Assembly: GCA_944382715.1 (NCBI GenBank)
Contig: CALWNC010000005.1
Span: 1 to 64,000, forward strand
Length of the DNA: 64,000 nucleotides
Source of the DNA: an uncultured Clostridia bacterium
GTDB taxonomy: Bacteria; Bacillota; Clostridia; Christensenellales; UBA1242
Direction of reading: 5' to 3'
A program made the translations under genes and the position numbers. The notes under the pieces were generated by a model. That model saw only the letters and a list, made by a program, of their open reading frames with translations, was not told the origin of the DNA and ran no database searches. Of the stretch, positions 43,680 through 60,167 are shown piece after piece. The stretch's first letter is position 1, and each line of letters begins with the position of its first letter.

Positions 43680-46108
43680 TGGCAAATAAAATTAATGTTG
43701 AAGTAAATAGTGGTAAAACAATTCTTTCAAGTGAAACTAAGATTTTCAAAACTGAAAGTTTCTTTTATCAAACAAAAAAAATTGCAAATATTGATAATTT
43801 TATCTTAAAAATTGCAGAAAATTTCACAAATTTATTTGAAAAAATCAAATCGTTAGATGGTACTAATTCTGCAAATGCATTTTGTGTTCAAACACTTAAT
43901 GGTGAGTTTTCTTTTCTGTTTAAACTGGGATATCAAATAAATGGAATTTATGGTATAAATGAAAAAGATATAATATTTTTTGAAATGATAAACGGAAAAG
44001 ATAAATTAAAATCAAAGGATCAAAGAATTAATATATTTTTGAAACAATCCAAAATCTTTACCGTGGTTATATCACCTTTTATGGCAGAAATAGATGAATC
44101 TATTTTTAAAAAGAATTACTTGATTTCATCTTCTGAGTTTATAAATTTTCCAATGCTTAGCGAAAAGCAAATGAAGTTAGTTCAAATAGAAAATGAAAAT
44201 GTTTTAGTTCAAGGCGTAGCTGGAAGTGGCAAAACAAATGTTTGTATCAGTAAAATAATTTTTACAGCTAGTAGATTTTATTCAGGTAAGATTCTCTATA
44301 CTACCTTTTCAAGGGGGCTATTGATTGATACTAAAAATAAGATAGAAATTTTCAAAAATTCTATTCAAAACTTAATAGACGATTATAAAAATAATAGAAT
44401 AGTTTTTCTAGATAAAAATCATAAGAAGGCAATTGAGAATAGGCTTGGAATTTATATAGTTTCGAACAATGATACAAATACAATAAAATCATTAGAAAAA
44501 ATGGTTGAGTTTTTTAACAAACAAATAGACTACAAATTATTCGAAGACTTATATAGAGATACTTTTGGGGAAGAACCAAAAATTTGTGGCGAAAATGAAT
44601 TTATTAAAGAGTTTTTACCAAACTTACAAAATCACCAACTTAAAAATAGACTTGATAAATTAAAAAATATTTCATTATCAATAATTTATAAAGAAATTTA
44701 TGGAATGATATTTGGTTGTTTTAAAGATGAGTATGAATTGTTGACGCTTAACGAGTACAAGGAAAAAAGACAAGGTAGTTTTAGTGGAGAAGAATGTGAA
44801 ATAATATATTTACTTGCAAAAGAGTTTGATAAATATAAAAAATCGCAAAACTTGTTTGATAATAACAGTATTTCCTTCAAATTAATGCAAAATATAGAAA
44901 AAATAAAAAAATATTCACTTTCAATAATTGACGAAGTTCAAGATTATACAGAGAAGAACTTAAATTTTTTAAAGCAAATTTCTATAAAGATGTTTTGTGT
45001 TGGTGATGCTCTTCAAATGATTAACCCTTCATATTTTAGTTTTGCCTATTTAAAGCAATTAATGTATAGGGAAGGTGTCACCAATGTTGCAGAACTTGAA
45101 TGCAATTACAGAAACAATAAAAAAATTGTTGAACTATTAGATGGTTTGTCGGAAATAAACACAACATTTTTTGGGACCCATAGCTTTGTTTTAAAGGGTG
45201 AAAGTATAGATGAAAATACACTTTCAAATGTAATATATACTGGTGACAAGCAGTTTATAGAAAAACTTAAAAGTGAAAAATTTGAAAATTTTACAATACT
45301 TGTAACTGACCAAAAAGAAAAAAATGAACTTAAAAAACTAATCAACAAGCAAGAAATTTTGACAATTTCTGAAGTAAAAGGTTTAGAAAGAGAAACAGTA
45401 GTTTTATATAACATTTTATCGGATAATAGTGATAAGTGGCTTAGACTTAATGAACTTAAAATTAATCATAAAACCGCCGATGAAAATTCTGTTTATAGAT
45501 ATTATTTTAATCTATTTTATGTGGGGTTATCAAGGGGGAAACACAATATCTTTGTTTATGAATGCAAAAAAATCCCAATCTTTGCTGATTTTATAAACGA
45601 AAACTTTTCGATTTTAAATGGGAACGATGCCTATGATAAATTTACTGATATTGTTGGCAAAATTGAAATTGATGAAGATGATATATTAGAAAGAATTAAT
45701 GAATTTATAAAACTTGGTCAATTTGACAATGCAAGATTTTATGCAGATAAGCTTGATGACGACTTTGAAAGTAAAAGGCAGTTTGAAAAGATTGATGCTT
45801 ATGAAAACTATATATTTAAAGGGAAGAATAAGCAGGCAGGTATAAAACTTTGGAAAGCAGGTCTAATTACCGAGGCAAAAGAACAGTTTGAAATTTGTGG
45901 TGAAAAAAAATTAATTGAATTCTTAGAAACTCTTGAAAATAAAAATCAAACTAATCTTGATGCTGATATTGTGAGATTTTTTGTTGATTTTGAAGATAAC
46001 CCAGACGCACAGGAATTAATATTAGATGTGCTCCGTCAAGATTTGGAACAGGTTAAAGAAAATCATAAAGTAATTAAGGAAAAACTCAAAAAATATAAGG
46101 AGAAATAG
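43679..46108 (+). CDS. UvrD-like superfamily 1 helicase with helical repeat tail
   Basis: An 809-residue protein. An N-terminal domain of unknown type (1-165) precedes SF1 motifs: Walker A GVAGSGKTN at 179-187, motif II IIDEVQD (Asp418-Asp422), motif III CVGDALQMI, motif IV CNYRNN, motif V TISEVKGLE and motif VI FYVGLSRGKHN. Residues about 640-809 hold TPR-like helix pairs (FDNARFYADKL, ITEAKEQFEICG). This resembles the UvrD-repeat layout of TRANK1-like proteins more than repair helicases. The ATG shares its A with the stop codon of the release-factor-like gene. It may act on RNA or ribosomes rather than DNA; this is inference. Confidence 0.82.
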   Translation: MANKINVEVNSGKTILSSETKIFKTESFFYQTKKIANIDNFILKIAENFTNLFEKIKSLDGTNSANAFCVQTLNGEFSFLFKLGYQINGIYGINEKDIIFFEMINGKDKLKSKDQRINIFLKQSKIFTVVISPFMAEIDESIFKKNYLISSSEFINFPMLSEKQMKLVQIENENVLVQGVAGSGKTNVCISKIIFTASRFYSGKILYTTFSRGLLIDTKNKIEIFKNSIQNLIDDYKNNRIVFLDKNHKKAIENRLGIYIVSNNDTNTIKSLEKMVEFFNKQIDYKLFEDLYRDTFGEEPKICGENEFIKEFLPNLQNHQLKNRLDKLKNISLSIIYKEIYGMIFGCFKDEYELLTLNEYKEKRQGSFSGEECEIIYLLAKEFDKYKKSQNLFDNNSISFKLMQNIEKIKKYSLSIIDEVQDYTEKNLNFLKQISIKMFCVGDALQMINPSYFSFAYLKQLMYREGVTNVAELECNYRNNKKIVELLDGLSEINTTFFGTHSFVLKGESIDENTLSNVIYTGDKQFIEKLKSEKFENFTILVTDQKEKNELKKLINKQEILTISEVKGLERETVVLYNILSDNSDKWLRLNELKINHKTADENSVYRYYFNLFYVGLSRGKHNIFVYECKKIPIFADFINENFSILNGNDAYDKFTDIVGKIEIDEDDILERINEFIKLGQFDNARFYADKLDDDFESKRQFEKIDAYENYIFKGKNKQAGIKLWKAGLITEAKEQFEICGEKKLIEFLETLENKNQTNLDADIVRFFVDFEDNPDAQELILDVLRQDLEQVKENHKVIKEKLKKYKEK

Positions 46109-46110
46109 AT

Positions 46111-46824
46111 ATGGATAATAAAGAAGTAAATTCATTGATAGAGGCATTTGTTGGATATAGAGAAATGCTTGTGCCAATTCAGTCAGATTTAAGTGAATTT
46201 CTAAATACCTATGAACTACTCAGAACAGATATTGATAAACTTTCAAATTCTTTTTCAGATGACGCGAAGTCAAAACTTGATGAAATTTATAAAAGCTTGG
46301 CAATTCAAGCTCAAAAGTCAGAAGAATTAACAAAAAAGGTTGACCAGTTTTTGAGAAGTTCAACTAAATATACAGAAGAAGTGGATAAATTAATTTCTAC
46401 TTTTGAAAATATTGAAACTAGGATAACGGGTATTAACGAGATTGAAAAGAGAGCAGAAACTCAGATTGCAAAATTAGACGCTATAATGGAAGAGAAAAAA
46501 AGGAGTTATAATCTTAAAGAACTTGAAAAGAGTTTAGATAGCTATAATGCAAATCTTCAGGCAGTAAGTGATTTTGTTAATAAAGATGTGGCTGAAAATA
46601 TTGTTTCTAATACCAAAATGATTCAATCAATAAAAGATGGAAGCGAAAATATTGTAAAAAGACTTGAAGACGAGAAGAAAAGTATTGATGAATTATATTT
46701 AAGCTATAAAACTTCAAACGATTTGCTTCGTAAAATTGTTGAAAAAGACGATGTAAATGAAGAATATATATTTGATATTATTGATAAGTGGGCAGAAAAT
46801 AGACATATAAAAATAAAAAAATAG
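46111..46824 (+). CDS. Coiled-coil protein, function unknown
   Basis: A 237-residue, highly charged, cysteine-free protein that is nearly all heptad-patterned helix (about 10-215), with a short C-terminal segment (EEYIFDIIDKWAENRHIKIKK). No membrane segment or signal. It starts two bases after the helicase stop, with an AAGGAG site, and ends 13 bp before the beta-helix membrane protein. It could link the cytoplasmic helicase to the membrane protein of the same operon, but this is only suggested by order. Confidence 0.7.
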   Translation: MDNKEVNSLIEAFVGYREMLVPIQSDLSEFLNTYELLRTDIDKLSNSFSDDAKSKLDEIYKSLAIQAQKSEELTKKVDQFLRSSTKYTEEVDKLISTFENIETRITGINEIEKRAETQIAKLDAIMEEKKRSYNLKELEKSLDSYNANLQAVSDFVNKDVAENIVSNTKMIQSIKDGSENIVKRLEDEKKSIDELYLSYKTSNDLLRKIVEKDDVNEEYIFDIIDKWAENRHIKIKK

Positions 46825-46837
46825 GAGGTAATTATTT

Positions 46838-49072
46838 ATGGATAGTCAAAGCATTAAAACTCTATTTCAAGCAGTAAAAAATGATGACTTAAAAACCTTT
46901 AAAAGTTTAATTTTGTCAAACTCAGATTTAAATTTATGTTTTGGCAGATTTCCTCTCCTATCAGTATGTTATCTCTATAATAGTTACAACATTTTAAATA
47001 AGTATGAAAAGTATATGCTAGGTATAAAGACCTATAATGAGGTCACAGAATATATAGAAATTTATTTAAAGTTTAAAAAATATGCAAAAAAATCAATAAG
47101 ACTTTTTTTAAATGGTGAAAAGGTTGAACCTATACTTATGCTCGCGGTTATTGATGAGCGAGAAAAAATCGCAAAATATTATGATAAACTTTATAAAAAT
47201 GATGAAATTTTGCAAAAATTAGAGATAATTTATAAAATTACTAATAAAGAAATAGTTTATGCAAATCAAAATTTATTTGAGGCGGCTTCAAAAAAGGTTG
47301 CAGTAAAAAAGCCACTAGGTCTTATTTTAACTGCCCTAGTAATGTGTTTAATGTTGGTCTTTCCAATAATTAGCATAACAATTATTTCTAATAGTTATGG
47401 AATTGGATCAAGGTCTAATCCAATACATATTAGAAATGAAACAGAATTTATAACTGCTCTAAATAAGGGAAGTAGATATTATATTCTTGACAATGATATA
47501 TATTTAACTCAAAATATCACTGTAGCAAATTTTTCTGGAACACTTGATGGAGATAACTATACCATTTATGCTGGTGATAGTCAAACGGGAGCAATTTTTA
47601 CAAATCTTAGTGGCAGTATAGAGAATATTAAAATTGAAATTGAGTATGAAAATTTGCAAATTCGTGGTAATTTTTCTGTAATTGCACATAATTTAACGGG
47701 AAATATTGTAAACACTGAAATTGCAGGCAATATAAATGCTGTCTTTGAAACAACTTCAGATACTTATCTTTCCCTGTATGTTATTAATAATAGCGGTACT
47801 ATTTCAAATTGTAATTTAAGTGTAGATGTTTCTGTTTCAAACTCATCAAATCAAAATGCATACTTAACGGGGTTCTCTGGAGTAAACTCTGGTTCAATTA
47901 TTAATTGTAAAACTGGAAATAACTTATTTACCACTGAAACGGTAGACACGGCTACATATGCGATTGAAAATAATGGAACAATTTCTGATTCATCAAGTTC
48001 TGTGTCTTTGACTCAAACTTCAGATAAAGAATGGCACCCTAACACTGCTGGAATTGCAATTAATAATAATGGCACAATTTCTAACACTCAAAATTTTGGC
48101 AGTGTGAGTTCAATTTCTAATAATGAACTGACTTCTTCTTCTGTAAATTCAAGTTTCGCACTTTATGCTAGTGGTGTAGTAGTAAATAATGCAGGTACAA
48201 TTTCAAATACCGAGAATTCAGGTTTAATTACTGGAATCGCACAGACTGCAAATATTTATGTTTCGGGTATAGTATGTTTAAATACTTTTAGTTATGAAAT
48301 TAACGGCAACCAGTTAAGTATAACTTCTCAGGGCAGAATAGATAATTGCAAAAATTTAGGTACGATTACTGGAACTTCACAAAGAAATGATCTAGAATCT
48401 GTCTATTTATATGCTGGAGGAATTGCCAGTGTTAGCTTAACCACCATTTCAAATTCTACCAGTTCGGGAAAAATAAATTGCAGTTCAGTTTCTTCAATTA
48501 TTTATGCTGGAGGAATTGCAGGTCAAGGTGGTTATGGTAATTATAGTGCATATGTTGAAAGAAATATTTCAAATTCATTTTCGGATTGTCAAATAGATGT
48601 TAGTTCAAATGTAGAAGTAATTGTTGGTGGTGTGGTTGGTTACAGCTATGCAACTAATATTAACGGTTCGGGTTTTGTTGGAAATATTAATATTAACTCT
48701 GTAATTGCAGAAGTTGGAGGCATTGCAGGGTTTGCATATCTTGCAACAATTTCAAACTCATATTCTGGTGCAAGCTTTAGTTTAGTAAGTGGCAGTGAAA
48801 GTGGCAGCCAAGAAGGGAATTCTCAAGCAGAAGAAAATCAAGTTTATATCTCAATGCTTGTGGGTTTGTATTTGACAAATTCAACAACAATTTATGTATC
48901 GAACAATTTATCAGTGGAAAATGTTACTTATCCTGCACTTAGATACCAACAAATAAATATTTTTGGTAATTATTCTGAAATTGTTGAAGTGACTGCCAGT
49001 GAATGCAACACTACACTTTTTGGCTCGGTAGAGGAAATGCTTGAATATGTACAAAGTGGAGGTGTAAACTAA
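46838..49072 (+). CDS. Membrane-spanning protein: helical inside domain, beta-helix outside domain
   Basis: A 744-residue protein in three parts. Residues 1-155 are helical and cytoplasmic, starting with ankyrin-like LFQAVKNDDLKTFKSLI. One membrane helix lies at about 160-184 (ALVMCLMLVFPIISITII). Residues about 190-744 are a repetitive, Asn/Ser/Thr-rich region with many G-x-I-x-N and GGIAG turns (GTISNTENSG, AGGIASVS, VGGVVGYS), as in GLUG-motif right-handed beta-helix surface proteins. There is no LPXTG anchor or signal peptidase site, so the membrane helix is the anchor. An adhesin or glycan-binding outer domain with an inside contact domain is likely. The next frame overlaps its stop codon. 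Confidence 0.78.
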   Translation: MDSQSIKTLFQAVKNDDLKTFKSLILSNSDLNLCFGRFPLLSVCYLYNSYNILNKYEKYMLGIKTYNEVTEYIEIYLKFKKYAKKSIRLFLNGEKVEPILMLAVIDEREKIAKYYDKLYKNDEILQKLEIIYKITNKEIVYANQNLFEAASKKVAVKKPLGLILTALVMCLMLVFPIISITIISNSYGIGSRSNPIHIRNETEFITALNKGSRYYILDNDIYLTQNITVANFSGTLDGDNYTIYAGDSQTGAIFTNLSGSIENIKIEIEYENLQIRGNFSVIAHNLTGNIVNTEIAGNINAVFETTSDTYLSLYVINNSGTISNCNLSVDVSVSNSSNQNAYLTGFSGVNSGSIINCKTGNNLFTTETVDTATYAIENNGTISDSSSSVSLTQTSDKEWHPNTAGIAINNNGTISNTQNFGSVSSISNNELTSSSVNSSFALYASGVVVNNAGTISNTENSGLITGIAQTANIYVSGIVCLNTFSYEINGNQLSITSQGRIDNCKNLGTITGTSQRNDLESVYLYAGGIASVSLTTISNSTSSGKINCSSVSSIIYAGGIAGQGGYGNYSAYVERNISNSFSDCQIDVSSNVEVIVGGVVGYSYATNINGSGFVGNININSVIAEVGGIAGFAYLATISNSYSGASFSLVSGSESGSQEGNSQAEENQVYISMLVGLYLTNSTTIYVSNNLSVENVTYPALRYQQINIFGNYSEIVEVTASECNTTLFGSVEEMLEYVQSGGVN

Positions 49073-49365
49073 TGAGGCTTTTAGGGAAATTATTATATCA
49101 GAAAAATAATAAGCTAAAGTTTATTTTATTAATATTATTATTTTGTCTTGCAATTTTAGATATTACTTTGATTATTTTTGATATTGTACAGTTTGTATTA
49201 GTTGAAAACAATAGGGCAAGCTTGTCAACATTCTTTGTACCTTTTAATGTAATATCAATAATATTAAACGCTGGCTGTTTGATTTATTTGATTGTTGTGG
49301 TGGCACTTAGTTTAAGAAAAGTTAAAAGTAAAGTAAAAAGGGAAAATAATAATGAACGGATTTGA
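49072..49365 (+). CDS. Small two-TM membrane protein
   Basis: A 97-residue protein with two hydrophobic helices (about 16-40 and 58-82) and a basic C-terminal tail (RKVKSKVKREN), so both ends are probably cytoplasmic. The ATG overlaps the stop codon of the beta-helix protein, and the frame overlaps the following HAD gene by 14 bases. This is tight coupling that implies joint function with its neighbours. Family not recognised. Confidence 0.68.
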   Translation: MRLLGKLLYQKNNKLKFILLILLFCLAILDITLIIFDIVQFVLVENNRASLSTFFVPFNVISIILNAGCLIYLIVVVALSLRKVKSKVKRENNNERI

Positions 49366-49918
49366 TTTTGATAAAACAATTTATAGAGGTGATTGCAGTA
49401 CTAATTTCTTTTTCTATATGATTTTCACTAGGTTTTATTTGCTTATATTTTCGCCTTACTTTTTAGTTGTTTTTTTACTTTATGGTTTACATTTAATAGG
49501 CAAGAAAAAGTTTAAAGAACTAATGTTTTTCTTTATTCCATGGCATAAGAATATTGATAAAATAACTGCAAAATTTTGGAAGAAAAATATAAAAAAAATA
49601 GAAAATTGGTACCTTGATATTCAAAAAGATGATGACATTATCATATCTGCAGGACTTGAATTTATTGTAAGACCAGCAATAGAGATGCTTGGAATAAAAA
49701 CGCTTTTGGCGACAAGGTATGATACAAGTACTGGAAAAATATCTGGTGAAAATTGCTATAATAAAGAGAAAGTCATAAGATTTAGAGAAATTTATCCTAA
49801 TGAAACACTTGAAGCCTTTTATAGTGACTCGCTGAGTGATTTGCCAATGATGGAAATCTCAAAAAGAGCATTCTTGGTTACAAAATCAAAGCCAAATGAA
49901 ATTTATGTAAATAAATAG
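49352..49918 (+). CDS. HAD-IB phosphatase with hydrophobic cap
   Basis: A 188-residue HAD-superfamily phosphatase of the phosphoserine-phosphatase type. Motif I is FDFDKTI (Asp5, Asp7), motif II is SAGLEFIVRP, motif III has Lys in GENCYNKEKVIR, and motif IV is YSDSLSDLPMM. The cap region (about 18-55) is a strongly hydrophobic stretch (YLLIFSPYFLVVFLLYGL) that may sit in the membrane, as in HAD-IB enzymes acting on lipid-linked or membrane substrates. It is the last gene of the release-factor-like operon. Confidence 0.82.
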   Translation: MNGFDFDKTIYRGDCSTNFFFYMIFTRFYLLIFSPYFLVVFLLYGLHLIGKKKFKELMFFFIPWHKNIDKITAKFWKKNIKKIENWYLDIQKDDDIIISAGLEFIVRPAIEMLGIKTLLATRYDTSTGKISGENCYNKEKVIRFREIYPNETLEAFYSDSLSDLPMMEISKRAFLVTKSKPNEIYVNK

Positions 49919-50301
49919 GAATACAACTATATTAATGTTAGTAAAAAATAGAAAGTCAAAAAAATAAATATTTTCTTAAATAAATATTTTTAATATATAA
50001 AAATAATATATTAGCTTACTATTTTTTAAACTACTAAAAAGAGCATTTTACTTTATGTACATATTAACTTTTTTTTATTTTTTTATTCTGCCAATTTAGA
50101 AATGATTTAACCTTAGTCTGCTATTCTTGAAACTAATAAAAAAGGAACTTTACTTTTTTGTGTATAGTTCCTTTTGTTTTTGTGCTAATTTCAAATTGTT
50201 TTTTTGTGCTAGCTTCAAAAGGTTTAATTTTACAAATATTTATTGTAAATATTATAAATTTGAAAGATTTAAAATAATTTTGAACATTTTATTTTATTAT
50301 T
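49919..50301. other. Intergenic region between the operon and the CRISPR locus
   Basis: AT-rich, no gene. A terminator at about 50138-50182 (AAAAGGAACT / AGTTCCTTTT, then GTTTTTG) closes the upstream operon. The 50 bp around it resemble the segment at 50013-50062, suggesting a decayed earlier copy of the same terminator. Immediately after it, two imperfect direct repeats of about 24 bp (TTTTTGTGCTA...TTCAAA) lie at about 50176-50225. Confidence 0.6.
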
Positions 50302-50330
50302 TTGAAAAATAAACTTATTTATGTTATACT
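50302..50330 (+). promoter_or_regulatory. Candidate cas9 operon promoter
   Basis: TTGAAA (50302-50307) and TATACT (50325-50330) with a 17-base spacer point toward cas9. The mRNA would start near 50337 and carry a leader of about 125 bases that is antisense to the entire tracrRNA gene. Confidence 0.6.
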
Positions 50331-50421
50331 AAAAAAAGAAAAGACTGAAAGGTCTTTTCTTTTGCATCACCTGATGCTGTGATTAGATAACATTTATTTG
50401 AACTCGTTATGTTATTCTAAT
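50331..50421 (-). ncRNA. tracrRNA of the type II-A CRISPR system
   Basis: Read on the minus strand from A50421. The anti-repeat pairs with the array repeat through 14 bases (50406-50419, complementary to GTTATGTTATTCTA). A four-base bulge (GAGT) and a six-base lower stem (UCAAAU against GUUUGA) follow, the same geometry as S. pyogenes. Next come a nexus-like segment (AAATGTTATCTAATCA), a hairpin GCATC/GATGC (50364-50377), and a terminator hairpin GAAAAGAC/GTCTTTTC (50338-50359) with seven T. Size is about 91 nt. Its promoter starts transcription almost exactly at the anti-repeat. Confidence 0.9.
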
Positions 50422-50427
50422 GTGTTA

Positions 50428-50456
50428 ATTATATCATTAATTTCATAAGGAGTCAA
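50428..50456 (-). promoter_or_regulatory. tracrRNA promoter overlapping the cas9 ribosome site
   Basis: On the minus strand TTGACT (50451-50456) and a perfect TATAAT (50428-50433) are separated by exactly 17 bases. The -35 element overlaps the cas9 AAGGAG (50447-50452), so cas9 translation signals and tracrRNA transcription signals share the same DNA. Confidence 0.85.
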
Positions 50457-50460
50457 ATAT

Positions 50461-53400
50461 ATGATTGATAAAAATTATTTTATTGGTTTTGATATTGGAA
50501 CAAATAGTGTTGGATATGCAGTAACTGATACAAATTATAATATAATTAGGTTAAAAGGGAAGCGAGCTTGGGGTGTTCGTCTTTTTGATGAGGCAAAAAC
50601 GGCAGTAGAGAGAAGGGCAAAGCGTGCGAGTCGTCGTAGACTTGATAGGAGAAAACTTAAACTGAAATGGCTTCAAGAAATTTTTGAACCTGAGATCAAT
50701 AAAATTGATAATAAATTTTTAATTCGTTTAAAATATAGTAATTTATGGCAAGAAGATAAACTTAAAATGGACGATTCATTGCTCACAAAAGACTCACTTT
50801 TTTATGGAGAGGTTAACGGTAAAAATTATACTGACAAAGATTACTATAATGAATACCCAACAATCTACCATTTACGAAAAGAGTTGACTCAAATACCTGC
50901 AAAAGATGTGAGATTTTTGTATCTCGCACTGCACAACATAATCAAAAGAAGAGGTCACTTTTTATACGAGGGAATGTATAGTCAAAATATTGATTTTGCA
51001 AAGATATATAACGAGTTTTTAGTTTATTGCAAAAATATAAATGAAGAAATGTTGAGTTTTTCATTAAATGCAATTTTAAATAATTCTGAAAGTGAAATTT
51101 TATCATATCTAAAGATTGGTTCTATTAGAGATAGAAAACTACAATTTTATAAATTGATGGGTGCTAACGACAAAACTTCAAAAAAGATTGTTGATATTAT
51201 GTTAGAAGGAAAGGGGACCACAAAAGATATTTTTATTTTGGGGGAAGAAATAGAGCCTACTAAATTTTCTTTTGATGATCCAAATTTTGAGGGTGAAATC
51301 TATTATGAACTTTCAAAGGTTTTAAGTGATGAACAATTAATTTTAATTGATAAATTAAAAGAAATCAATTCGGTTTTAAACTTAAAAAAAATTCTTGGGG
51401 AAAACAATTACATTTGTGAAGCAATGGTAGATGTTTTTAATGAACATAAGTTACAACTCAAAATGTTTAAGCACTTTATAAAAAAATATCATTCTTCAAA
51501 ATATTTTGATATTTTTAGAAATCCTCTTTCAAGTGAAAAAAATAAGTTTTCTTTTGTGAATTATCCATATTATATTGGATTGTCAAACTTTGGTGGAAAT
51601 GGAAAATTTAAGAATATTGGGAGTAGTGTTACACTTACAAACTCAAAAGGTCTAAAAGAAGATTTTTATAAGTTTGTTATGGAAATTTTAAATTTGCCAC
51701 CAGAAAAAACTTTAAATATTGATGAATATAAAAGTAAAAAGGCTGAAATTATTGAGCTTATTGAAAATAATAATTTCTTAAACAGACAAAGGTCAAGAGC
51801 AAATACAGTATTTCCAAACAAACTATATGAAAAGGAAGTAAGAAGAATTTTAGATATAAATGTAACAAAATTTAGTTTTTTAAAAGCAACTGATGATACT
51901 GGACTCACAAATTATGAAAAGATTTTAAAAATTTTAACATTTAAAATTCCTTATTTTGTTGGACCTATTGGAAACGGCAAAGAAGATGAAAACACTTATT
52001 CTTGGTCTAATAGAATTAGTAATCAACCTATTTACCCATGGACAATAGACAAAATTGTTAATTTTGATATATCCGAAGAAGCATTTATCAGTAAAATGAT
52101 AAATAAATGCACTTATTTAAGTGATTACTATGTTCTTCCAAAACATTCACTTCTTTATAGTAGATTTTGCGTGCTAAATGAATTAAACAAATTAAAAATT
52201 AATGGAAACAATATAAGTGTTGAATTAAAGCAGTTAATATTTAATAAATTATTTAAGAACTCGAAAAAAGTCACCCTGAAAAGTTTAAAGGAATTTTTAC
52301 TTTGTGAAGGAAAATTTTCAAATGATGAAATAAAGGATATTGAAATTTCTGGAATAGATAAAGATTTTGCAAACGATTATTCATCATATTATCAAATGAA
52401 AAATATCTTTGGTGAAGAATTCATTGATGGAAATTTGGATATTGTAGAAAATATTATCAAGTACATTACAATCATAAATGATAAAAATAGACTTGAAAAA
52501 AGGATTGAAAGAGAGTATGGTAATATTATTTCTACCGAAAATATAAAGAAGCTAAAAGCATTGAATTATTCTGATTGGGGAAGATTATCTGAAGAATTTA
52601 TTGCAAAATTATTCTTTATTAATATAAAAACAGGTGAAAAAACTACAATAATTGATGAACTTTGGAATACGAACCAAAATTTGCAAGAAATTTTATTTAA
52701 TAGTTCATACACTCTAAATGATGTTTTAGAAACGAATTCGCAAAAGACTATTAAAGATTTGACTTATGAGAGTGTGCAGGAACTTTATTGCTCGCCTAGT
52801 GTAAAGCGTGGCGTTTGGCAAACTATTTGTATGCTAAAAGAGATTATAAAACTTACTGGAAAAGAACCTGAGAAAGTTTTTGTTGAAGTTACTCGTCATG
52901 ATGAGAAAAAAGGTGAAGATGGAAGAAAACTTTCAAGAAAAAATAACTTGTTAAAAATATATAATTCAAAAGAGTTTAAGTCAATAGTAAATGAAATAGA
53001 TTTTGATTTATCTAAGCTAAATGATGAACTTAATAGTAAAAATGACAGTGAACTTAGAAGCGAGAAATTATATTTGTATTTTTTGCAACTGGGGAAGTGC
53101 GCTTATTCAGGTGAGCCAATAAATATTTTAGATATATACAAAGATAATTTATATGATGTTGACCACATTATACCACAGTCTATTTTGAAAGATGATAGTA
53201 TAACAAATAAGGTTTTAGTAAAACAGGATTATAATAAAAATAAAAGTGATACTTATCCAATTTCAAAAAGATTTAATTGGGTGAAGCAACAGGATTATTT
53301 TTGGAAAATTTTAGTAAAATTAAATCTCATGGATAAGGAAAAATATTCAAGACTTGTCAGAAATGATGACTTGACCGAAGATGAGATAGGTGGTTTTGTT

Positions 53401-54711
53401 GCAAGGCAACTTGTGCAAACCAATCAAACTGTTAAGGCAGTTGTTGATTTGATAAAGAATTCTTTAAGTAATTCACGAAATGTTGTTTATTCAAAAGCTA
53501 GATTCGTATCAGAATTTAGAAAAGAAACGGAGATTTTTAAAAGTAGAGAGGTAAATGACTATCATCATGCAAAAGATGCATACCTTAATGTTGTTGTTGG
53601 CAATATCTTGTATAATAGATTTACTGATGATCCAAGAAATTTTTATAAAAATAAATTTAATATAGGTAAGACTAAGAACATAAAAAAGCTTTTTAAAGAA
53701 ACAATATTTAGTTATAGGAATGGTGAAATCATTTGGAATGGATTAAGTGATATTTCAAGAATAAAAGAAATTGCAAACAGAAACGATTGCATTGTAAGTC
53801 ATATGAGTTTTAAAAACTTAAATGGTGCATATTATGATGAAACCATATATAAAAGTCATAAAAACAATAAAAACACAAAAGCAAAAATTAGTTTAAAGGG
53901 AGATGAGAACAATCCACTAAGTTCATATGAAAAATATGGTGGGTATAATAATATGTCGTCTGCTTATTTTATGCTTGTTGAAAGTGAAGATAAGAAAGGA
54001 AATAAGATAAAAACCATAGAAACTGTGCCAATATTTGCAGTTAGAAAATTTAAAGGGAACGATGATTTTGATGAAAAAATCTTAGATTATTTAACAAAGG
54101 AAAATCATTTGATTAATGCAAGAGTACTCATAAAAGATTTAAATATTAAATCAACTATAAAAATTGGTAAAGGCGAATATTTGCTTGCAGGAAAAACTGA
54201 AGATAGATATGTACTCCACAATGCAAATGAATGGAATATTTCTAATGAGAATATTAAATATATAAAGGGAATTGAAAAATATATTCAAATGAAAACTCAG
54301 AAAAAAACTGCAAATCTTATGGAAATTGACGAAAAAGTAGTTATATCTCCTAAGGCAACCGATAAAAATTCTGAAATTATAATAAGCAAAAAAGAAAATG
54401 AAAATCTATACGAGTTGTTAATTGCTCAGTTTGATAAGGATATGTATAAGGGCTTGGCTCTTGAAAATGTTGGGAAAAAATTAAACGAAAAGAAAGAAAA
54501 GTTTGACTCTTTGTCAGCATTAGAGCAGGCTGAACTTATTTTTAATGTCATAAAGAGGCTTTCAACTGGTGCCACACTTGCAGATTTAAAATTAATAGGA
54601 GATAGTTCCAATGTTGGTAAAATATCAATAAGTAAGAATATAACAAACTTAGATGTGTATTTAATTAAACGCTCATTTACTGGCTTATTTGAAAAACACA
54701 TTAAACTTTGA
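50461..54711 (+). CDS. cas9: Cas9 endonuclease, type II-A
   Basis: A 1416-residue RNA-guided DNA endonuclease, slightly longer than SpyCas9 (1368). RuvC-I has Asp11 in FDIGTNSVGYAV. An Arg-rich bridge helix (KRASRRRLDRRKLK, about 55-70) and a long recognition lobe follow. RuvC-II has Glu809 in VFVEVTR, the HNH domain has Asp901/His902 in DVDHIIPQS and an Asn in NKNKSD, and RuvC-III has His1035 and Asp1039 in YHHAKDAYLN. All catalytic residues are present, so the enzyme should be active. The C-terminal PAM-interacting region differs from well-known Cas9s, and I cannot predict the PAM. AAGGAG ribosome site eight bases from the ATG. First gene of cas9-cas1-cas2-csn2. Confidence 0.98.
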   Translation: MIDKNYFIGFDIGTNSVGYAVTDTNYNIIRLKGKRAWGVRLFDEAKTAVERRAKRASRRRLDRRKLKLKWLQEIFEPEINKIDNKFLIRLKYSNLWQEDKLKMDDSLLTKDSLFYGEVNGKNYTDKDYYNEYPTIYHLRKELTQIPAKDVRFLYLALHNIIKRRGHFLYEGMYSQNIDFAKIYNEFLVYCKNINEEMLSFSLNAILNNSESEILSYLKIGSIRDRKLQFYKLMGANDKTSKKIVDIMLEGKGTTKDIFILGEEIEPTKFSFDDPNFEGEIYYELSKVLSDEQLILIDKLKEINSVLNLKKILGENNYICEAMVDVFNEHKLQLKMFKHFIKKYHSSKYFDIFRNPLSSEKNKFSFVNYPYYIGLSNFGGNGKFKNIGSSVTLTNSKGLKEDFYKFVMEILNLPPEKTLNIDEYKSKKAEIIELIENNNFLNRQRSRANTVFPNKLYEKEVRRILDINVTKFSFLKATDDTGLTNYEKILKILTFKIPYFVGPIGNGKEDENTYSWSNRISNQPIYPWTIDKIVNFDISEEAFISKMINKCTYLSDYYVLPKHSLLYSRFCVLNELNKLKINGNNISVELKQLIFNKLFKNSKKVTLKSLKEFLLCEGKFSNDEIKDIEISGIDKDFANDYSSYYQMKNIFGEEFIDGNLDIVENIIKYITIINDKNRLEKRIEREYGNIISTENIKKLKALNYSDWGRLSEEFIAKLFFINIKTGEKTTIIDELWNTNQNLQEILFNSSYTLNDVLETNSQKTIKDLTYESVQELYCSPSVKRGVWQTICMLKEIIKLTGKEPEKVFVEVTRHDEKKGEDGRKLSRKNNLLKIYNSKEFKSIVNEIDFDLSKLNDELNSKNDSELRSEKLYLYFLQLGKCAYSGEPINILDIYKDNLYDVDHIIPQSILKDDSITNKVLVKQDYNKNKSDTYPISKRFNWVKQQDYFWKILVKLNLMDKEKYSRLVRNDDLTEDEIGGFVARQLVQTNQTVKAVVDLIKNSLSNSRNVVYSKARFVSEFRKETEIFKSREVNDYHHAKDAYLNVVVGNILYNRFTDDPRNFYKNKFNIGKTKNIKKLFKETIFSYRNGEIIWNGLSDISRIKEIANRNDCIVSHMSFKNLNGAYYDETIYKSHKNNKNTKAKISLKGDENNPLSSYEKYGGYNNMSSAYFMLVESEDKKGNKIKTIETVPIFAVRKFKGNDDFDEKILDYLTKENHLINARVLIKDLNIKSTIKIGKGEYLLAGKTEDRYVLHNANEWNISNENIKYIKGIEKYIQMKTQKKTANLMEIDEKVVISPKATDKNSEIIISKKENENLYELLIAQFDKDMYKGLALENVGKKLNEKKEKFDSLSALEQAELIFNVIKRLSTGATLADLKLIGDSSNVGKISISKNITNLDVYLIKRSFTGLFEKHIKL

Positions 54712-54718
54712 GGTAAAA

Positions 54719-55618
54719 ATGGGATTTAGAACTATTGTTATTCAAAATCGCTCCAAACTTGATTTAAAGATGAATTATTTGGTTTGTCGAGGAGAAAATG
54801 AAATTAAAGTATATATTCCTGAAATATCCTATTTAATATTAGAATCAACTGCAATTTCACTCACAACTGCATTACTTAGCGAGCTTATAAAAAATAATGT
54901 AAAAGTAATATTTTGTGACGAGAAGCACAGTCCAGAAAGTGAACTCGTTGGATTATATGGGAACTATAATTGTGTTAGTAAATTAAAAAGTCAAATTTTT
55001 TGGAAGGAAGATATTAAGTCGTGGATATGGCAAGAAATTATAAAAAATAAAATCTATCAACAATCTCTTTTTTTGAATGAACTAAATTATAAACAAGAAT
55101 TTGAACTATTAAACAATTATTATCAAAATGTTGAAATAAATGATACGACTAATCGTGAGGGTCATTCTGCAAAAGTATATTTTAATGCTATTTTTGGCAA
55201 TGATTTTTGCAGAAGGGAAGAGGGAAACATTAACAGGGCATTAAATTATGGCTATTCACTTTTGCTTTCGTGTTTTAATCGTGAGATAGTGAAACAAGGA
55301 TATTCTACACAACTTGGCATTTGGCATAAAAATGAGTTTAATTACTACAATTTAAGCAGTGATCTTATGGAACCATTTAGAATCATTGTTGATAGATTTG
55401 TATTTAAAATATTAATTCAAAGTGTTGACTTTAAAGAATATAAGTTGCAATTACTAAAAATATTTGATTTACAACTTCTTATTGACGGGAAAAAACAATT
55501 TTTAGAAAATGCAATTTCAATTTATTGTCAAAGCATTTTTGAAAATCTTAATAATAATTTAAGGAATAAGATAAAATTTTATGAGTTGCAGAATTATGAG
55601 AATGATAATATTTTTTGA
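54719..55618 (+). CDS. cas1: Cas1 integrase, type II-A
   Basis: A 299-residue spacer integrase; with Cas2 it inserts new spacers at the leader end of the array. The opening MGFRTIVIQNRSKLDLKMN and the REGHSAKVYFNAIFG segment, holding metal-binding Glu and nearby residues, are typical of type II Cas1, as is LMEPFRIIVDRFVF. I start at the ATG 54719, with GAGG six bases upstream overlapping the cas9 stop; an in-frame ATG at 54689 lies inside cas9. The length fits the family (about 290-305). Confidence 0.96.
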   Translation: MGFRTIVIQNRSKLDLKMNYLVCRGENEIKVYIPEISYLILESTAISLTTALLSELIKNNVKVIFCDEKHSPESELVGLYGNYNCVSKLKSQIFWKEDIKSWIWQEIIKNKIYQQSLFLNELNYKQEFELLNNYYQNVEINDTTNREGHSAKVYFNAIFGNDFCRREEGNINRALNYGYSLLLSCFNREIVKQGYSTQLGIWHKNEFNYYNLSSDLMEPFRIIVDRFVFKILIQSVDFKEYKLQLLKIFDLQLLIDGKKQFLENAISIYCQSIFENLNNNLRNKIKFYELQNYENDNIF

Positions 55619-55901
55619 TTTACCCACCATAACAACAAAGGATTTAAAGGAATATAGAAACTTTAGAAAATTTTTAATAAAAAATGGTTTTATTATGATG
55701 CAAGAGTCAGTATATTCAAGGTTGATTTTAAATAATAATTCTGCAAAGTTATTAAAAAATCAAGTTTATAAGAATCTTCCAAGTGCTGGACTTATTCAAA
55801 TGCTTCAAGTTACTGAAAAACAATTTGCAAATATTGAATATATGAGGGGAAAATCTCAAAATAAAATTTTAGATTCAAATGAAAGGATAACTATTTTATG
55901 A
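55596..55901 (+). CDS. cas2: Cas2, type II-A
   Basis: A 101-residue structural partner of Cas1 in the integration complex. It begins MRMIIFFDLPT, with the conserved Asp of the ferredoxin-like fold, and continues with YRNFRKFLIKNGFIMMQESVYSR, standard for type II Cas2. The frame overlaps the end of cas1 by 23 bases; an earlier ATG at 55581 would add five residues. The csn2 ATG overlaps its stop codon (ATGA). Confidence 0.95.
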   Translation: MRMIIFFDLPTITTKDLKEYRNFRKFLIKNGFIMMQESVYSRLILNNNSAKLLKNQVYKNLPSAGLIQMLQVTEKQFANIEYMRGKSQNKILDSNERITIL

Positions 55902-56560
55902 AGCTTGTTCATTCAGATTTCTTATTTCAAATAGATTTTGAAGAAAATGATTGCTACTCATTAATAATTGAAAATTCAAAAGAATTTTATAATAAAACTA
56001 ATGAGTTATACTGTCAATCCAATGGAGGTGACGGAAATTTTGTATTGTCAGATAATTCTGAAATAAGCATATCAAAAAATTGTCTTTATATTTATGACTA
56101 TTATGGGGATTTTTTAAATAGTAAAAAGACTATTTCATCAATAAATAAAAAAGTAGTAGAGATTTTAAAAAACAATGATTTTCTTCAAGAGTTTAATGAA
56201 ATTAATAAATTGATTTTTAATATTAATGATAGGGTAATTGAAGAACTGGATTATAATGTTGAATATATTGATAATTTTGATTTTGAAACATTTGTAAAGT
56301 TGTCTAATTATACGATAAAAACAGATGTGTCATTGCTTGAAAATTTAATTGCATATATCCAAATTTATGCACAAAATGAAAATAAAAAATTGTTAGTGTT
56401 TATTAACTTGTTTTCAGTTTTAGAAAAAGAAGAGATAAAATTACTAATAAAACAAATTAGATATATGCAATTAAATATTTTATTTATTGATTCAAACCAA
56501 AAATACAAATTTGAGGATATAAAAACAATTATAATTGATGAAGACCTTTGTATAATTTGA
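55898..56560 (+). CDS. csn2: Csn2, type II-A adaptation protein
   Basis: A 220-residue member of the classical short Csn2 group, the same length as the S. pyogenes protein. Csn2 forms Ca2+-stabilised tetrameric rings that bind DNA ends during spacer acquisition. The N-terminal strand-rich part (MKLVHSDFLFQIDFEEND), the central helical region and the ending VFINLFSVLEKEEIKLL, then LNILFIDSNQKY, match the family pattern. It overlaps cas2 by four bases. Its stop codon lies inside the array promoter. Confidence 0.93.
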   Translation: MKLVHSDFLFQIDFEENDCYSLIIENSKEFYNKTNELYCQSNGGDGNFVLSDNSEISISKNCLYIYDYYGDFLNSKKTISSINKKVVEILKNNDFLQEFNEINKLIFNINDRVIEELDYNVEYIDNFDFETFVKLSNYTIKTDVSLLENLIAYIQIYAQNENKKLLVFINLFSVLEKEEIKLLIKQIRYMQLNILFIDSNQKYKFEDIKTIIIDEDLCII

Positions 56561-56585
56561 CAAAAGAGAGTAAAAGTACTAGAAT
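56557..56585 (+). promoter_or_regulatory. CRISPR array promoter overlapping the csn2 stop
   Basis: Perfect TTGACA (56557-56562), whose TGA is the csn2 stop codon, and TAGAAT (56580-56585) with a 17-base spacer. Transcription should start near 56592, about 44 bases before repeat 1. Confidence 0.82.
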
Positions 56586-56590
56586 AAAAA

Positions 56591-56635
56591 TATATAGAAT
56601 AAATGCCGTAAGCATAAATAATTCCGATCTTTGAG
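56591..56635 (+). promoter_or_regulatory. CRISPR leader with anti-repeat and integration-anchor motif
   Basis: TATATAGAATAA (56591-56602) is the exact reverse complement of bases 15-26 of the repeat, so the 5' end of the pre-crRNA can fold onto repeat 1 (56650-56661) with a loop of about 47 bases. The leader ends CTTTGAG (56629-56635) directly against repeat 1, one base from ATTTGAG, the leader-anchoring sequence known for streptococcal type II-A integration. Confidence 0.75.
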
Positions 56636-57133
56636 GTTTGAGAGTTATGTTATTCTATATACTACTAAAACTAAAAAGTTTTATTGATGGTTATTTGAGT
56701 GGTTTGAGAGTTATGTTATTCTATATACTACTAAAACTTCTTCGGCATCGTAATCCAAATTGCCAGTGTTTGAGAGTTATGTTATTCTATATACTACTAA
56801 AACAATGTATAATGCTATCATAATTCATCCTTCGTTTGAGAGTTATGTTATTCTATATACTACTAAAACAAAAGCAAATCACGAGTAATAGGAACATAAG
56901 TTTGAGAGTTATGTTATTCTATATACTACTAAAACGATTGTTTAAACGAAAAAATTAAATAAGGTGTTTGAGAGTTATGTTATTCTATATACTACTAAAA
57001 CGTTTTAGAAATAGTAAAACATATGAAACAAGTTTGAGAGTTATGTTATTCTATATACTACTAAAACGTTTTGCCTAATGGAACTAGTCCAGATGCAGTT
57101 TGAGAGTTATGTTATTCTATATACAACTATAAT
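56636..57133 (+). CRISPR. CRISPR array, 8 repeats and 7 spacers, type II-A
   Basis: Repeats of 36 bases start GTTTGAGAGTTATGTT and end ACTACTAAAAC. They begin at 56636, 56702, 56768, 56834, 56900, 56966, 57032 and 57098. All seven spacers are exactly 30 bases. The first seven repeats are identical; the last differs at about three positions in its 3' end, the usual sign of the leader-distal end, which puts the leader on the csn2 side. The repeat aligns with the S. pyogenes type II-A repeat in the same orientation and is complementary to the tracrRNA found upstream of cas9. Confidence 0.99.
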
Positions 57134-57262
57134 TATAAATGCAAAATAATTTAATTTGTAGCTATATTTGTTTTGCGATGGCTGATAAATGGGAATAAAA
57201 AACTACAATAGATAATATTATTAAAAAGTAAAATATAAAAAAAGATAACCTACTTTATTATT

Positions 57263-57292
57263 TTGTAATAAATGTATTAAATGGAATATAAT
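57263..57292 (+). promoter_or_regulatory. Promoter for the post-CRISPR membrane protein
   Basis: TTGTAA (57263-57268) and TATAAT (57287-57292) with an 18-base spacer, in the 254-bp gap after the array. No terminator hairpin is visible between the last repeat and this site. Confidence 0.5.
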
Positions 57293-57387
57293 GATATGTT
57301 TAATATATAAGAATATGAAAAACACGAAAATTTAAAATATTATATATATTGATTTGATTATATTTAAAATTATAGTGGGGTGTTTAG

Positions 57388-58335
57388 ATGTCAGATATTG
57401 ATTTGTATGATAGTAGTGGAAATTATTATGGCACTTTGAGAAATGACGATTCTGGTGGAGGAGGGCCACAGCCTAATGAAGCATACTTTAAAAATAGTTT
57501 TTTCAAAATAATATTATTATTTTTTGGGTGGATTTTATTTGGAGTACTCACATACAACATGATAATTCACTTGATATTGCCATCAAGTAATATTTTGTTT
57601 GGTTTAATTAATTCATTTCCATTAATCATTACATTGCTAATAATTTTAATATTTAATTGTAGAACATTTGCTAAACTAGTATTTTGGATAAAAGTAAAAA
57701 AAATGATGAATTCTTATGCTACTAATGGTATAGTAAAAGGTAAATTTTTTACAAAAAAACTGAACAACGAAATAAATGGATTTATTATTAATAAAATAAA
57801 GATAACAAAAGAAAATACAGAGAAAATAATAGATATGGATTTATATCTTGATGAATTAAATGAAATATATAAAAATAATAAAGGTATATCAGTTAAGACA
57901 TTAAGGATATTTTCCATTGCTATAACAATACTAATTTATTTTTTATCATTTCTTATTATTATATTAAAAAGTTTTACACTAGTAAATGTAAATATACAAG
58001 AAGCTTTAATGGCACTTATTGGTATGGTGTTTGGATTTGGAATAATTTATATTATTGCTGAAAATATAATTGAAATTGTAAAAAGAATTAAGCCTAAAAG
58101 TATAATAATTAGTATGATTGTTTCTTTAAGTTTTGGTGCCATAATTGGATATATTTTACAAATATTGATATTTTTAATGCTAGAATTAATTTTTGTTTCA
58201 AGAAATTTTGATAGTATTAACCTTGGATTAGAATGTGTAATTATAGGCATTTTAGGAACATTTGAAATTTGTAATTTAATTATATTAAAAACACATAGAT
58301 ATAAGGGAATAGAAGAGCTAAACATAAATAAATAA
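57388..58335 (+). CDS. Multi-pass membrane protein next to the CRISPR array, function unknown
   Basis: A 315-residue protein. A soluble Gly/Asp-rich N-terminus (to about 33) precedes two membrane helices (about 37-60 and 65-90). A cytoplasmic charged stretch (about 95-165) and four more helices (about 172-195, 207-230, 242-270, 285-303) follow. The start has a GGGGTG ribosome site. I recognise no family. It has its own promoter, and its place beside the array may be coincidental; no Cas-accessory signature is visible. Confidence 0.65.
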   Translation: MSDIDLYDSSGNYYGTLRNDDSGGGGPQPNEAYFKNSFFKIILLFFGWILFGVLTYNMIIHLILPSSNILFGLINSFPLIITLLIILIFNCRTFAKLVFWIKVKKMMNSYATNGIVKGKFFTKKLNNEINGFIINKIKITKENTEKIIDMDLYLDELNEIYKNNKGISVKTLRIFSIAITILIYFLSFLIIILKSFTLVNVNIQEALMALIGMVFGFGIIYIIAENIIEIVKRIKPKSIIISMIVSLSFGAIIGYILQILIFLMLELIFVSRNFDSINLGLECVIIGILGTFEICNLIILKTHRYKGIEELNINK

Positions 58336-58360
58336 AATCTAAATTTTCTTAATATTAGAT

Positions 58361-58395
58361 AAAAAGACATCTAATTGAATTTAGGTGTCTTTTTG
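58361..58395. terminator. Bidirectional terminator between convergent genes
   Basis: AAAAAGACATCTAA pairs with TTAGGTGTCTTTTT (one G-T pair). It lies between the membrane protein gene and the thioesterase gene, and its right arm contains the thioesterase stop codon. Confidence 0.82.
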
Positions 58396-58821
58396 TGTTA
58401 CATAGTTTTTCATAATTTCATCTATTTTAGGGTATTGCTTTTTAATAATAATTGGTTTTCCACTTTTACTGGTAAAACAGTGACAAGAAGAGCCGACAAA
58501 TACAACTTTACTATCTTTTTCATTAATCATTTTATAAGAAAATTCAAATTTTACCCCATTGTAATGAGAAAGTTCTACCTCAATTATAATTTTGTCACCA
58601 AAGGTTGTTGGTAATTTGTAATCACAATTAATTGAAATTACTGGGGAAATGATGCCAAGGTTTTCCATTAAATTATAATTGCAATTAATCGTTTCTAAAT
58701 AATATATTCTTGACTCTTCCATAAAACGAATATAATTTGAATGATGAGTGATTCCCATTTTGTCAGTTTCATAATAGTTAATTGACCGTGAATATTTTAC
58801 AATAAAATCTTGATTTTTCAT
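58381..58821 (-). CDS. Acyl-CoA thioesterase, hotdog fold
   Basis: A 146-residue 4HBT/YbgC/FadM-type thioesterase that hydrolyses acyl-CoA. The active-site segment YYETDKMGITHHSNY (residues 16-30) holds the catalytic Asp20 and the following Gly and His residues; the hotdog helix and five strands follow, with the usual length (130-150). An AGAGGA ribosome site precedes the ATG. It is monocistronic. The acyl substrate is unknown. Confidence 0.9.
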   Translation of the reverse strand: MKNQDFIVKYSRSINYYETDKMGITHHSNYIRFMEESRIYYLETINCNYNLMENLGIISPVISINCDYKLPTTFGDKIIIEVELSHYNGVKFEFSYKMINEKDSKVVFVGSSCHCFTSKSGKPIIIKKQYPKIDEIMKNYVTQKDT

Positions 58822-59208
58822 ATTGATTCCTCTAACTATAATTATACAAATTTAAAAAATTAAATCAAATATATTTATTAAATTGTTAAAATTTTGTAAA
58901 TGTATAATTTGTACTTAATTAAGTAAAAATATACATTTTTATTAATTAACAAATTTAAAATTTATCAAAAGTTATTGATAAGCAAATATAAATTGAAAAC
59001 AGAAAATAGATTTAATATAGTAGAGAAATTGAAAAGTGATTTAGTTATCTGTTTTTTATAAAAACATTAATTTGTGGATTTTACAAATTTTAAATAAAAA
59101 ATATAAAATTATAAATAAAATTAGTATAACTAATATTATTTTTTTGCATATTAATAAACTATAAGAGTAGGATTAAATGAATATTCAGGAAAAGCAAAAG
59201 GATAAAAT
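58822..59208. other. AT-rich intergenic region between divergent genes
   Basis: About 390 bp containing the divergent promoters of the thioesterase and ZIP transporter genes. Apart from the small upstream ORF at 59177 I see no gene or structured element. Confidence 0.6.
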
Positions 59209-59212
59209 ATGA
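59177..59212 (+). CDS. 11-residue upstream ORF coupled to the ZIP transporter gene
   Basis: The ORF MNIQEKQKDKI begins six bases after TAGGA and ends in TGA, which overlaps the ZIP start codon as ATGA. It could be a regulatory leader peptide or simply serve translational coupling. Very short, so chance is a real alternative. Confidence 0.35.
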   Translation: MNIQEKQKDKI

Positions 59213-59979: not shown

Positions 59980-60042
59980 TTAAATAAAACCTAAAAATGA
60001 AAATTCATATTCATTTTAAAGAAATATTTAAATAAAAAAATT

Positions 60043-60083
60043 AAAGTTTGTCAAGAAAAAATCTTTGTCAAACTTTTTTTTAT
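60043..60083 (+). terminator. Terminator after the ZIP gene
   Basis: AAGTTTG / CAAACTT with further internal pairing (AAG/CTT), then TTTTTTTT. Confidence 0.75.
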
Positions 60084-60125
60084 TAATATTTTACAATAAA
60101 ATCATAGTTATTTGTAAATGGTTGG

Positions 60126-60134: not shown

Positions 60135-60167
60135 AAAAAAGATATTTTAGTCTTTCAAGGAGAATTT

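What the first reader, a model, noticed from the sequence alone, without database searches (positions are those of the whole stretch)
50331..50456. tracrRNA gene interlocked with the cas9 start: shared promoter and ribosome-site DNA
The sequence shows a minus-strand tracrRNA (anti-repeat 14 bp, GAGT bulge, 6-bp lower stem, hairpin, terminator) with TTGACT-17-TATAAT. The predicted start falls on the anti-repeat, so there is probably no long form. The -35 overlaps the cas9 AAGGAG. In S. pyogenes a long tracrRNA form represses the cas promoter; here control may instead come from RNA polymerase occupancy or antisense pairing.
Basis: partly seen in the sequence, partly recalled or inferred. Interest (0 to 1): 0.72.

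Follow-up and report, generated by a model that had tools for sequence, protein, structure and literature searches.

The report
tracrRNA nested antisense to cas9 leader
In this gut bacterium and many relatives, the small RNA that Cas9 needs is read from the opposite strand of the DNA just before the cas9 gene, so the two transcripts probably overlap and could restrain each other; the layout is real and conserved, but its effect has not been measured.

Summary
A type II-A tracrRNA gene lies on the minus strand at about 50421-50331. Its promoter (TTGACT-17-TATAAT) reaches into the cas9 ribosome site; the -35 and AAGGAG share two bases.

The only strong plus-strand promoter upstream of cas9, TTGAAA-17-TATACT (50302-50330), abuts the tracrRNA terminator. 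If it drives cas9, the first 85 nt of the 124-nt cas9 leader are the exact complement of the whole tracrRNA.

Across 72 non-redundant loci of Clostridia and some other phyla, plus-strand promoters are enriched beyond the tracrRNA 3' end (28 of 72) and absent between tracrRNA and cas9 (0 of 72). The tracrRNA -35 lies near the cas9 start in 64 of 72. Anti-repeats match their own repeats.

I found no sign of a long, self-guiding tracrRNA. This resembles the P2cas promoter proven in Group B Streptococcus, without the P1cas/tracr-L module.

Best reading: face-to-face transcription units, one short tracrRNA, a fully antisense cas9 leader, with mutual interference or RNA pairing likely but unproven. 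A ribosome-site switch model was tested and is not conserved. New variant of a known kind.

The parts
50331..50421 (-). tracrRNA gene (about 91 nt), short form only
   Evidence: anti-repeat, bulge, lower stem, hairpin, terminator read directly; cofold with repeat -40.2 kcal/mol; only perfect 14-mer outside the array
50396..50419 (-). anti-repeat: 14-bp upper stem (50419-50406), GAGT bulge (50405-50402), 6-bp lower stem (50401-50396)
   Evidence: cognate pairing conserved in 52 loci with arrays, native -27.6 vs swapped -13.9 kcal/mol
50334..50363 (-). tracrRNA intrinsic terminator stem, followed by T7 ending at 50331
   Evidence: 12 pairs; 2 terminators found vs 0.2 expected in the region
50428..50456 (-). 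P_tracr: TTGACT (50456-50451), 17 bp, TATAAT (50433-50428)
   Evidence: TTGAC invariant in 10 of 10 family loci; P_tracr significant in 61 of 72 loci
50447..50452 (+). cas9 ribosome-binding site AAGGAG, sharing 50451-50452 with the P_tracr -35
   Evidence: sequence; position
50302..50330 (+). candidate cas operon promoter P_cas: TTGAAA, 17 bp, TATACT with TG extension; predicted start about 50337, abutting the tracrRNA T-tract
   Evidence: 10 of 12 matches, second best site in region; class enriched in relatives
50337..50460 (+). predicted 124-nt cas9 mRNA leader; 50337-50421 exactly complementary to the tracrRNA
   Evidence: follows from P_cas position; cofold -143.2 kcal/mol
50461..54711 (+). 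cas9 (1416 aa)
   Evidence: NCBIfam TIGR01865, E 5e-256
54689..55618 (+). cas1 (type II)
   Evidence: TIGR03639, E 1e-88
55581..55901 (+). cas2
   Evidence: TIGR01573
55898..56560 (+). csn2 (makes the locus type II-A)
   Evidence: TIGR01866, E 7e-37
56636..57133 (+). CRISPR array, 8 repeats of 36 nt, 7 spacers of 30 nt; last repeat degenerate at its 3' end

Best explanation
This is a type II-A CRISPR-Cas9 locus in which the tracrRNA gene is nested, antisense, inside the leader of the cas operon. Two promoters face each other about 85 bp apart. P_tracr lies on the cas9 ribosome site and fires leftward, giving only a short tracrRNA that ends at its terminator. P_cas abuts that terminator and fires rightward through the tracrRNA gene into cas9. 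There is no second cas promoter in the gap and no long, self-guiding tracrRNA. Inferred: transcription from one promoter reduces the other, and the cas9 leader and tracrRNA can form a long RNase III-type duplex, so Cas9 and tracrRNA output are coupled in cis. Shown in sequence: tracrRNA, promoters by consensus and conservation, geometry, no long-form signature. Not shown: any transcript, and any regulatory effect. My confidence is about 0.85 in the layout and about 0.4 that the overlap matters for regulation; the figure given is for the combined statement.
For: P_cas candidate TTGAAA-17-TATACT at 50302-50330. In 30 loci, best plus promoters beyond the tracrRNA 3' end beat shuffles (combined p 7e-8, 10 of 29 with enough sequence); the gap does not (0 of 30) and the reverse strand does not (p 0.86, 2 of 29). 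In 72 non-redundant loci: upstream p 8e-15 (28 of 72), gap p 0.99997 (0 of 72), reverse-strand control p 0.40 (7 of 72), P_tracr p 1e-50 (61 of 72). At one locus per 70%-identity Cas9 cluster, extended -10 score of 7 or more: 38 of 70 upstream plus, 6 of 70 upstream minus, 2 of 70 gap; paired p 6e-7. P_tracr -35 within -30..+2 of the cas9 ATG in 64 of 72. Cognate repeat:anti-repeat pairing in 52 loci. No repeat mimic upstream. [quoted passage not shown]
Against: No RNA data for this organism. Only 28 of 72 loci have a P_cas candidate that is individually significant, and several family members (L006, L009, L011, L015) have none by this score. Combined p-values treat related loci as independent. 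The P_cas start is predicted, so the leader's 5' end is too. GBS strains with both promoters show that such overlap can coexist with a P1cas in the gap. In GBS, P2cas is controlled by CovR; no counterpart was sought here.
Confidence: 0.55

Rival explanations
1. Compact packing without regulation. The overlap of P_tracr with the cas9 ribosome site and the antisense leader are by-products of a short intergenic region; both promoters work independently enough that neither interference nor pairing matters.
For: The -35 sits at several offsets: around -5 to -13 or around -20 to -25 from the ATG, with outliers to -79, so exact ribosome-site overlap is not required. In GBS, immunity works with transcription through the tracrRNA gene (PMC12216829 passages).
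Against: The face-to-face order is kept in Cas9s that differ by more than 60% of residues, whereas spacing would be free to open if neutral. Two strong promoters 85 bp apart are expected from general knowledge to interfere.
Confidence: 0.38
2. tracrRNA as translation activator. The leader copy of the anti-repeat (50396-50410) pairs with the ribosome site (50444-50457); tracrRNA binding would free it, coupling Cas9 synthesis to tracrRNA supply.
For: In the window the ribosome site is paired in the predicted leader fold (unpaired 0.17) and core:ribosome-site pairing is -12.7 kcal/mol, the strongest of 30 loci.
Against: Not beyond chance in the window (4 of 40 shuffles as low) and not conserved: 15 family loci mean unpaired 0.45 against 0.42 for shuffles, p 0.45. 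The complementarity follows from TTGAC next to GGAG facing TTTGAACTC.
Confidence: 0.05
3. A long tracrRNA acts as a natural single guide that represses the cas promoter, as in S. pyogenes and GBS.
For: In the window the complement of the ribosome site (TTTGACTCCTTATG) resembles the repeat and could pair with the anti-repeat (-11.2 kcal/mol).
Against: That pairing is not beyond shuffles (p 0.13) and is absent in relatives (combined p 0.86, 15 loci). No strong minus promoter upstream, predicted starts on the anti-repeat, and no P1cas-like target promoter in the gap (0 of 72).
Confidence: 0.05
4. cas9 has no dedicated promoter and is transcribed by read-through from the upstream genes (ending 49918); the leader is still antisense to tracrRNA but longer.
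For: Upstream genes are co-oriented; several relatives lack a significant P_cas.
Against: About 540 bp separate cas9 from the upstream gene; plus-strand promoters are enriched just beyond the tracrRNA 3' end across loci.
Confidence: 0.1

Closest known systems
[quoted passage not shown] passages read)
   Same: tracrRNA antisense upstream of cas9; a cas promoter at the tracrRNA 3' end reading through the tracrRNA gene; in CC-17 strains it is the only cas promoter
   Different: GBS also has Ptracr-L and usually P1cas, CovR binds P2cas, and P2cas lies about 300 bp from cas9; here about 124 bp, no gap promoter, no long form, and P_tracr lies on the ribosome site
S. pyogenes type II-A tracr-L/tracr-S system (PMC11417352 passages; the original tracr-L paper is cited there and was not read)
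   Same: type II-A genes, antisense upstream tracrRNA, short form
   Different: no second upstream tracrRNA promoter, no repeat mimic, no gap promoter to serve as target
Listeria monocytogenes cas9 locus (L165)
   Same: antisense tracrRNA close upstream of cas9; best plus promoter at -301, beyond the tracrRNA
Face-to-face promoter pairs with transcriptional interference and cis-antisense RNAs (recalled, no call)
   Same: two promoters firing at each other over a short shared region
   Different: here one product is a functional guide-RNA cofactor

Membership tests
Type II-A CRISPR-Cas | cas9, cas1, cas2 and csn2 in one operon | tested here: met
   TIGR01865, TIGR03639, TIGR01573, TIGR01866 above cut-offs
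Type II-A CRISPR-Cas | array transcribed in the direction of the cas genes, with cognate repeat | tested here: met
   8 repeats at 56636-57133; plus orientation gives the anti-repeat pairing
tracrRNA gene | anti-repeat pairing with the repeat, bulge and lower stem, then terminator | tested here: met
tracrRNA gene | RNase III co-processing with crRNA and Cas9 binding | not testable with these tools
   needs RNA and protein work
tracr-L autorepression system | second, upstream tracrRNA promoter | tested here: not met
   only P_tracr and a weak site at 51173-51144 on the minus strand upstream of the tracrRNA within 50000-51200
tracr-L autorepression system | 5' extension that pairs with the anti-repeat | tested here: not met
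   window p 0.13, 15 family loci combined p 0.86
tracr-L autorepression system | cas promoter between tracrRNA and cas9 | tested here: not met
   0 of 72 loci
tracr-L autorepression system | guide match with PAM in the cas promoter | not tested
   PAM of this Cas9 unknown
P2cas-type cas promoter (GBS) | plus-strand promoter at the tracrRNA 3' end | tested here: met
   sequence only: 50302-50330; enriched in relatives
P2cas-type cas promoter (GBS) | drives cas transcription | not testable with these tools
   needs RNA data

The most novel reading that the evidence does not exclude
Across a large group of Clostridial and related type II-A systems, tracrRNA has a second job: as the perfect cis-antisense of the cas9 leader, with its promoter on the cas9 ribosome site, it limits Cas9 (and is itself limited), replacing the tracr-L autorepression known from streptococci.
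Probability: 0.35. Interest if true: 0.75.

Novelty: new variant of a known kind. Interest (0 to 1): 0.5.

Why it matters
Cas9 is costly to over-express, and the only tracrRNA-based brake described in the papers read here needs a long tracrRNA and a cas promoter in the gap. This group seems to have neither, yet keeps a face-to-face layout. If the antisense overlap sets Cas9 levels, tracrRNA is a regulator as well as a cofactor in many gut bacteria, and the GBS antisense RNA, called unique to that species in 2015 (PMC4448216), is one case of a common design. It also makes a concrete prediction that one reporter fragment can test.

Tried and rejected
Ribosome-site sequestration opened by tracrRNA: strong in the window fold but not conserved. 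Long tracrRNA or natural single guide: no support. A spacer aimed at the promoter region: no spacer shares 9 nt or more with 50281-50470. A tracrRNA elsewhere: none. Rfam: no tracrRNA family hit in 44000-64000, only a sub-threshold snoR43 match. First Cas9 scan of genome contigs found no relatives; the alignment query did.

Rows dropped; 36 of 297 genomes matched; I used 16 family loci plus the window and left out truncated L012 and L014, L017 (no recognisable tracrRNA core), and L022-L031 (a different, shorter Cas9 lineage); 47 of 396 genomes matched a chance-prone pattern; of 50 stretches read (L032-L061), 14 had a Cas9 start downstream, one a repeat of L013, so 13 were used. L082-L091 were left out of the start survey as records of loci already held (L082-L086 and L088-L090 were used only); of 73 loci (70, 3) 65 gave a start; 95 loci, 9 dropped for no core or too short, 14 as redundant, 72 kept. 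L045's start was mis-chosen by the script. Fisher p-values assume independence; one search is the clustered check.

Papers: passages only of PMC11417352, PMC12216829, PMC4448216, PMC6431027, PMC3936727, PMC6882279 and PMC8224270. Searches for a published clade-wide description found none in this library, which lacks most subscription papers; I saw listings and the passages named, not every listed paper.

Full report
What is there. The window holds a complete type II-A locus: cas9 50461-54711, cas1, cas2, csn2 and an 8-repeat array at 56636-57133. On the minus strand just upstream of cas9 lies a tracrRNA gene. The tracrRNA cofolds with the repeat at -40.2 kcal/mol. The exact 14-mer occurs nowhere else in the 1.61-Mb assembly except the 8 repeats. 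The -35 shares two bases with the cas9 AAGGAG (50447-50452); the rest of the promoter lies directly upstream of it.

The missing piece. Scanning both strands of 50000-51200 gives, as the two best-placed sites, P_tracr (11 of 12) and a plus-strand promoter TTGAAA-17-TATACT at 50302-50330 (10 of 12, with TG). Another plus-strand site of 10 of 12 lies inside cas9 (50705-50734), where it cannot serve the cas9 start. The number of sites in the region (7) is no more than in shuffles (7.3), so score and conservation carry the case. The upstream promoter abuts the T-tract of the tracrRNA terminator (50337-50331). A transcript starting near 50337 would carry a 124-nt leader, of which 50337-50421 is the exact complement of the tracrRNA; the computed duplex is -143.2 kcal/mol. 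Each promoter therefore lies at the edge of the other's gene.

Conservation in the family. Cas9 relatives in the same family carry the same block. In ten aligned loci TTGAC is invariant, spacing is 17 in nine by the scan (the tenth, L010, scored 15 there and 17), and the predicted start falls on the anti-repeat. In L006 and L008 the ribosome site has drifted (AAGGGG, GAGAGG) while TTGAC stays, so the -35 is kept for its own sake. Among 101 ribosome-site-preceded ORFs in the fetched DNA, GTCAA within 14 nt of the ATG occurs in 16, of which 15 are these cas9 genes.

Conservation beyond. Pattern search in the order, an alignment-based scan of named genomes and a viral-contig scan gave loci from uncultured Clostridia, Lachnospiraceae and other Eubacteriales, Riflebacteria, a Selenomonadales bin and others (titles; many are metagenome bins, so their taxonomy is as deposited). 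In 72 non-redundant loci the minus-strand P_tracr between the cas9 start and the anti-repeat is significant in 61. Its -35 lies within -30..+2 of the ATG in 64 and in the ribosome-site zone (-17..-4) in 40; many others have it just upstream of the ribosome site, at about -20 to -25. Exact ribosome-site overlap is thus one of two common positions, and outliers reach -79 (L123). The plus-strand promoter beyond the tracrRNA 3' end is significant in 28 of 72 (combined p 8e-15), the reverse strand of the same DNA in 7 (p 0.40), and the gap between tracrRNA and cas9 in 0 (p 0.99997). Taking one locus per 70%-identity Cas9 cluster, an extended -10 scoring 7 or more of 8 occurs upstream in 38 of 70, on the reverse strand in 6 of 70, in the gap in 2 of 70 (paired p 6e-7). 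In 52 loci whose array was in reach, anti-repeats pair with their own repeat at -27.6 kcal/mol on average against -13.9 when swapped (none of 5000 permutations as low); one locus, L160, pairs weakly (-7.4). These are genuine tracrRNAs.

No long form. S. pyogenes and GBS make a long tracrRNA that folds on itself and guides Cas9 to the cas promoter in the gap (PMC11417352, PMC12216829; passages). Here there is no strong upstream minus promoter, no upstream segment that mimics the repeat (15 family loci, combined p 0.86; window alone p 0.13), and no gap promoter to be targeted (0 of 72). The guide-target part could not be tested because the PAM is unknown.

How it most likely works. The sequence shows two face-to-face promoters with a shared 85-bp region. 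From established knowledge of such pairs (recalled), polymerases moving toward each other reduce each other's output, and complementary RNAs are RNase III substrates. [quoted passage not shown] Earlier RNA sequencing saw a ~100-nt antisense RNA over the tracrRNA 3' end, described as unique to S. agalactiae and suggested to modulate tracrRNA (PMC4448216, passages). I infer that the group studied here runs on a P2cas-like promoter alone. Whether the overlap is a regulator or just compact packing cannot be decided from sequence; I put the regulatory reading near 0.4 and packing near as likely.

Tested and not supported. In the window, the leader copy of the anti-repeat can pair with the ribosome site, which would make tracrRNA an activator of cas9 translation. 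Across 15 family loci the ribosome site is no more hidden than with shuffled leaders (0.45 vs 0.42 unpaired; p 0.45). I reject it as the general mechanism.

Novelty. The components are known; a cas promoter at the tracrRNA 3' end is known in one species. What seems new, within the library searched, is that the nested antisense layout with P_tracr at the cas9 start and no gap promoter is the common state of a wide group of type II-A loci. I class it as a new variant of a known kind.

Noticed in passing
50376-50421 minus strand; also L003-L016, L051, L069, L094, L098, L107, L144: The tracrRNA anti-repeat is complementary to its own nexus region (window AUUAGAAUAACAU / AUGUUAUCUAAU), so free tracrRNA may fold into a hairpin that crRNA must displace. 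A swap test over 75 loci favours native pairs (no permutation of 2000 as low; family alone p 0.077), but relatedness is not controlled and most single loci are not significant.
   Followed up: partly
50444-50457 plus vs 50410-50396 minus: The cas9 ribosome-site stretch CATAAGGAGTCAAA is a near copy of the tracrRNA anti-repeat core CATAACGAGTTCAAA; unusually close in this genome, weaker in relatives.
   Followed up: yes
L033, L037, L038, L102, L106, L135 upstream of cas9: In these relatives the tracrRNA has extra 5' sequence that pairs back onto the upper anti-repeat, a repeat-like 5' hairpin starting at about the predicted start site; reminiscent of a single-guide fold without a guide (read by eye).
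   Followed up: no
L133 upstream of cas9 (about 2330-2480): A tracrRNA-like sequence lies on the same strand as cas9 instead of antisense, an apparent inversion of the usual layout.
   Followed up: no
L116, L123, L129, L143, L153, L157: Longer core-to-ATG distance (118-153 nt); where scored, the P_tracr -35 lies 42 to 79 nt from the cas9 start instead of next to it.
   Followed up: no
57098-57133: The last repeat has a changed 3' end and the first repeat is preceded by TTTGAG, placing the leader at the csn2 side (the leader motif is recalled).
   Followed up: no
50331-50363 plus strand: The cas leader would begin with the complement of the tracrRNA terminator hairpin, so early termination or attenuation of cas transcripts is possible; GBS shows a ~100-nt RNA from the equivalent promoter.
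   Followed up: no
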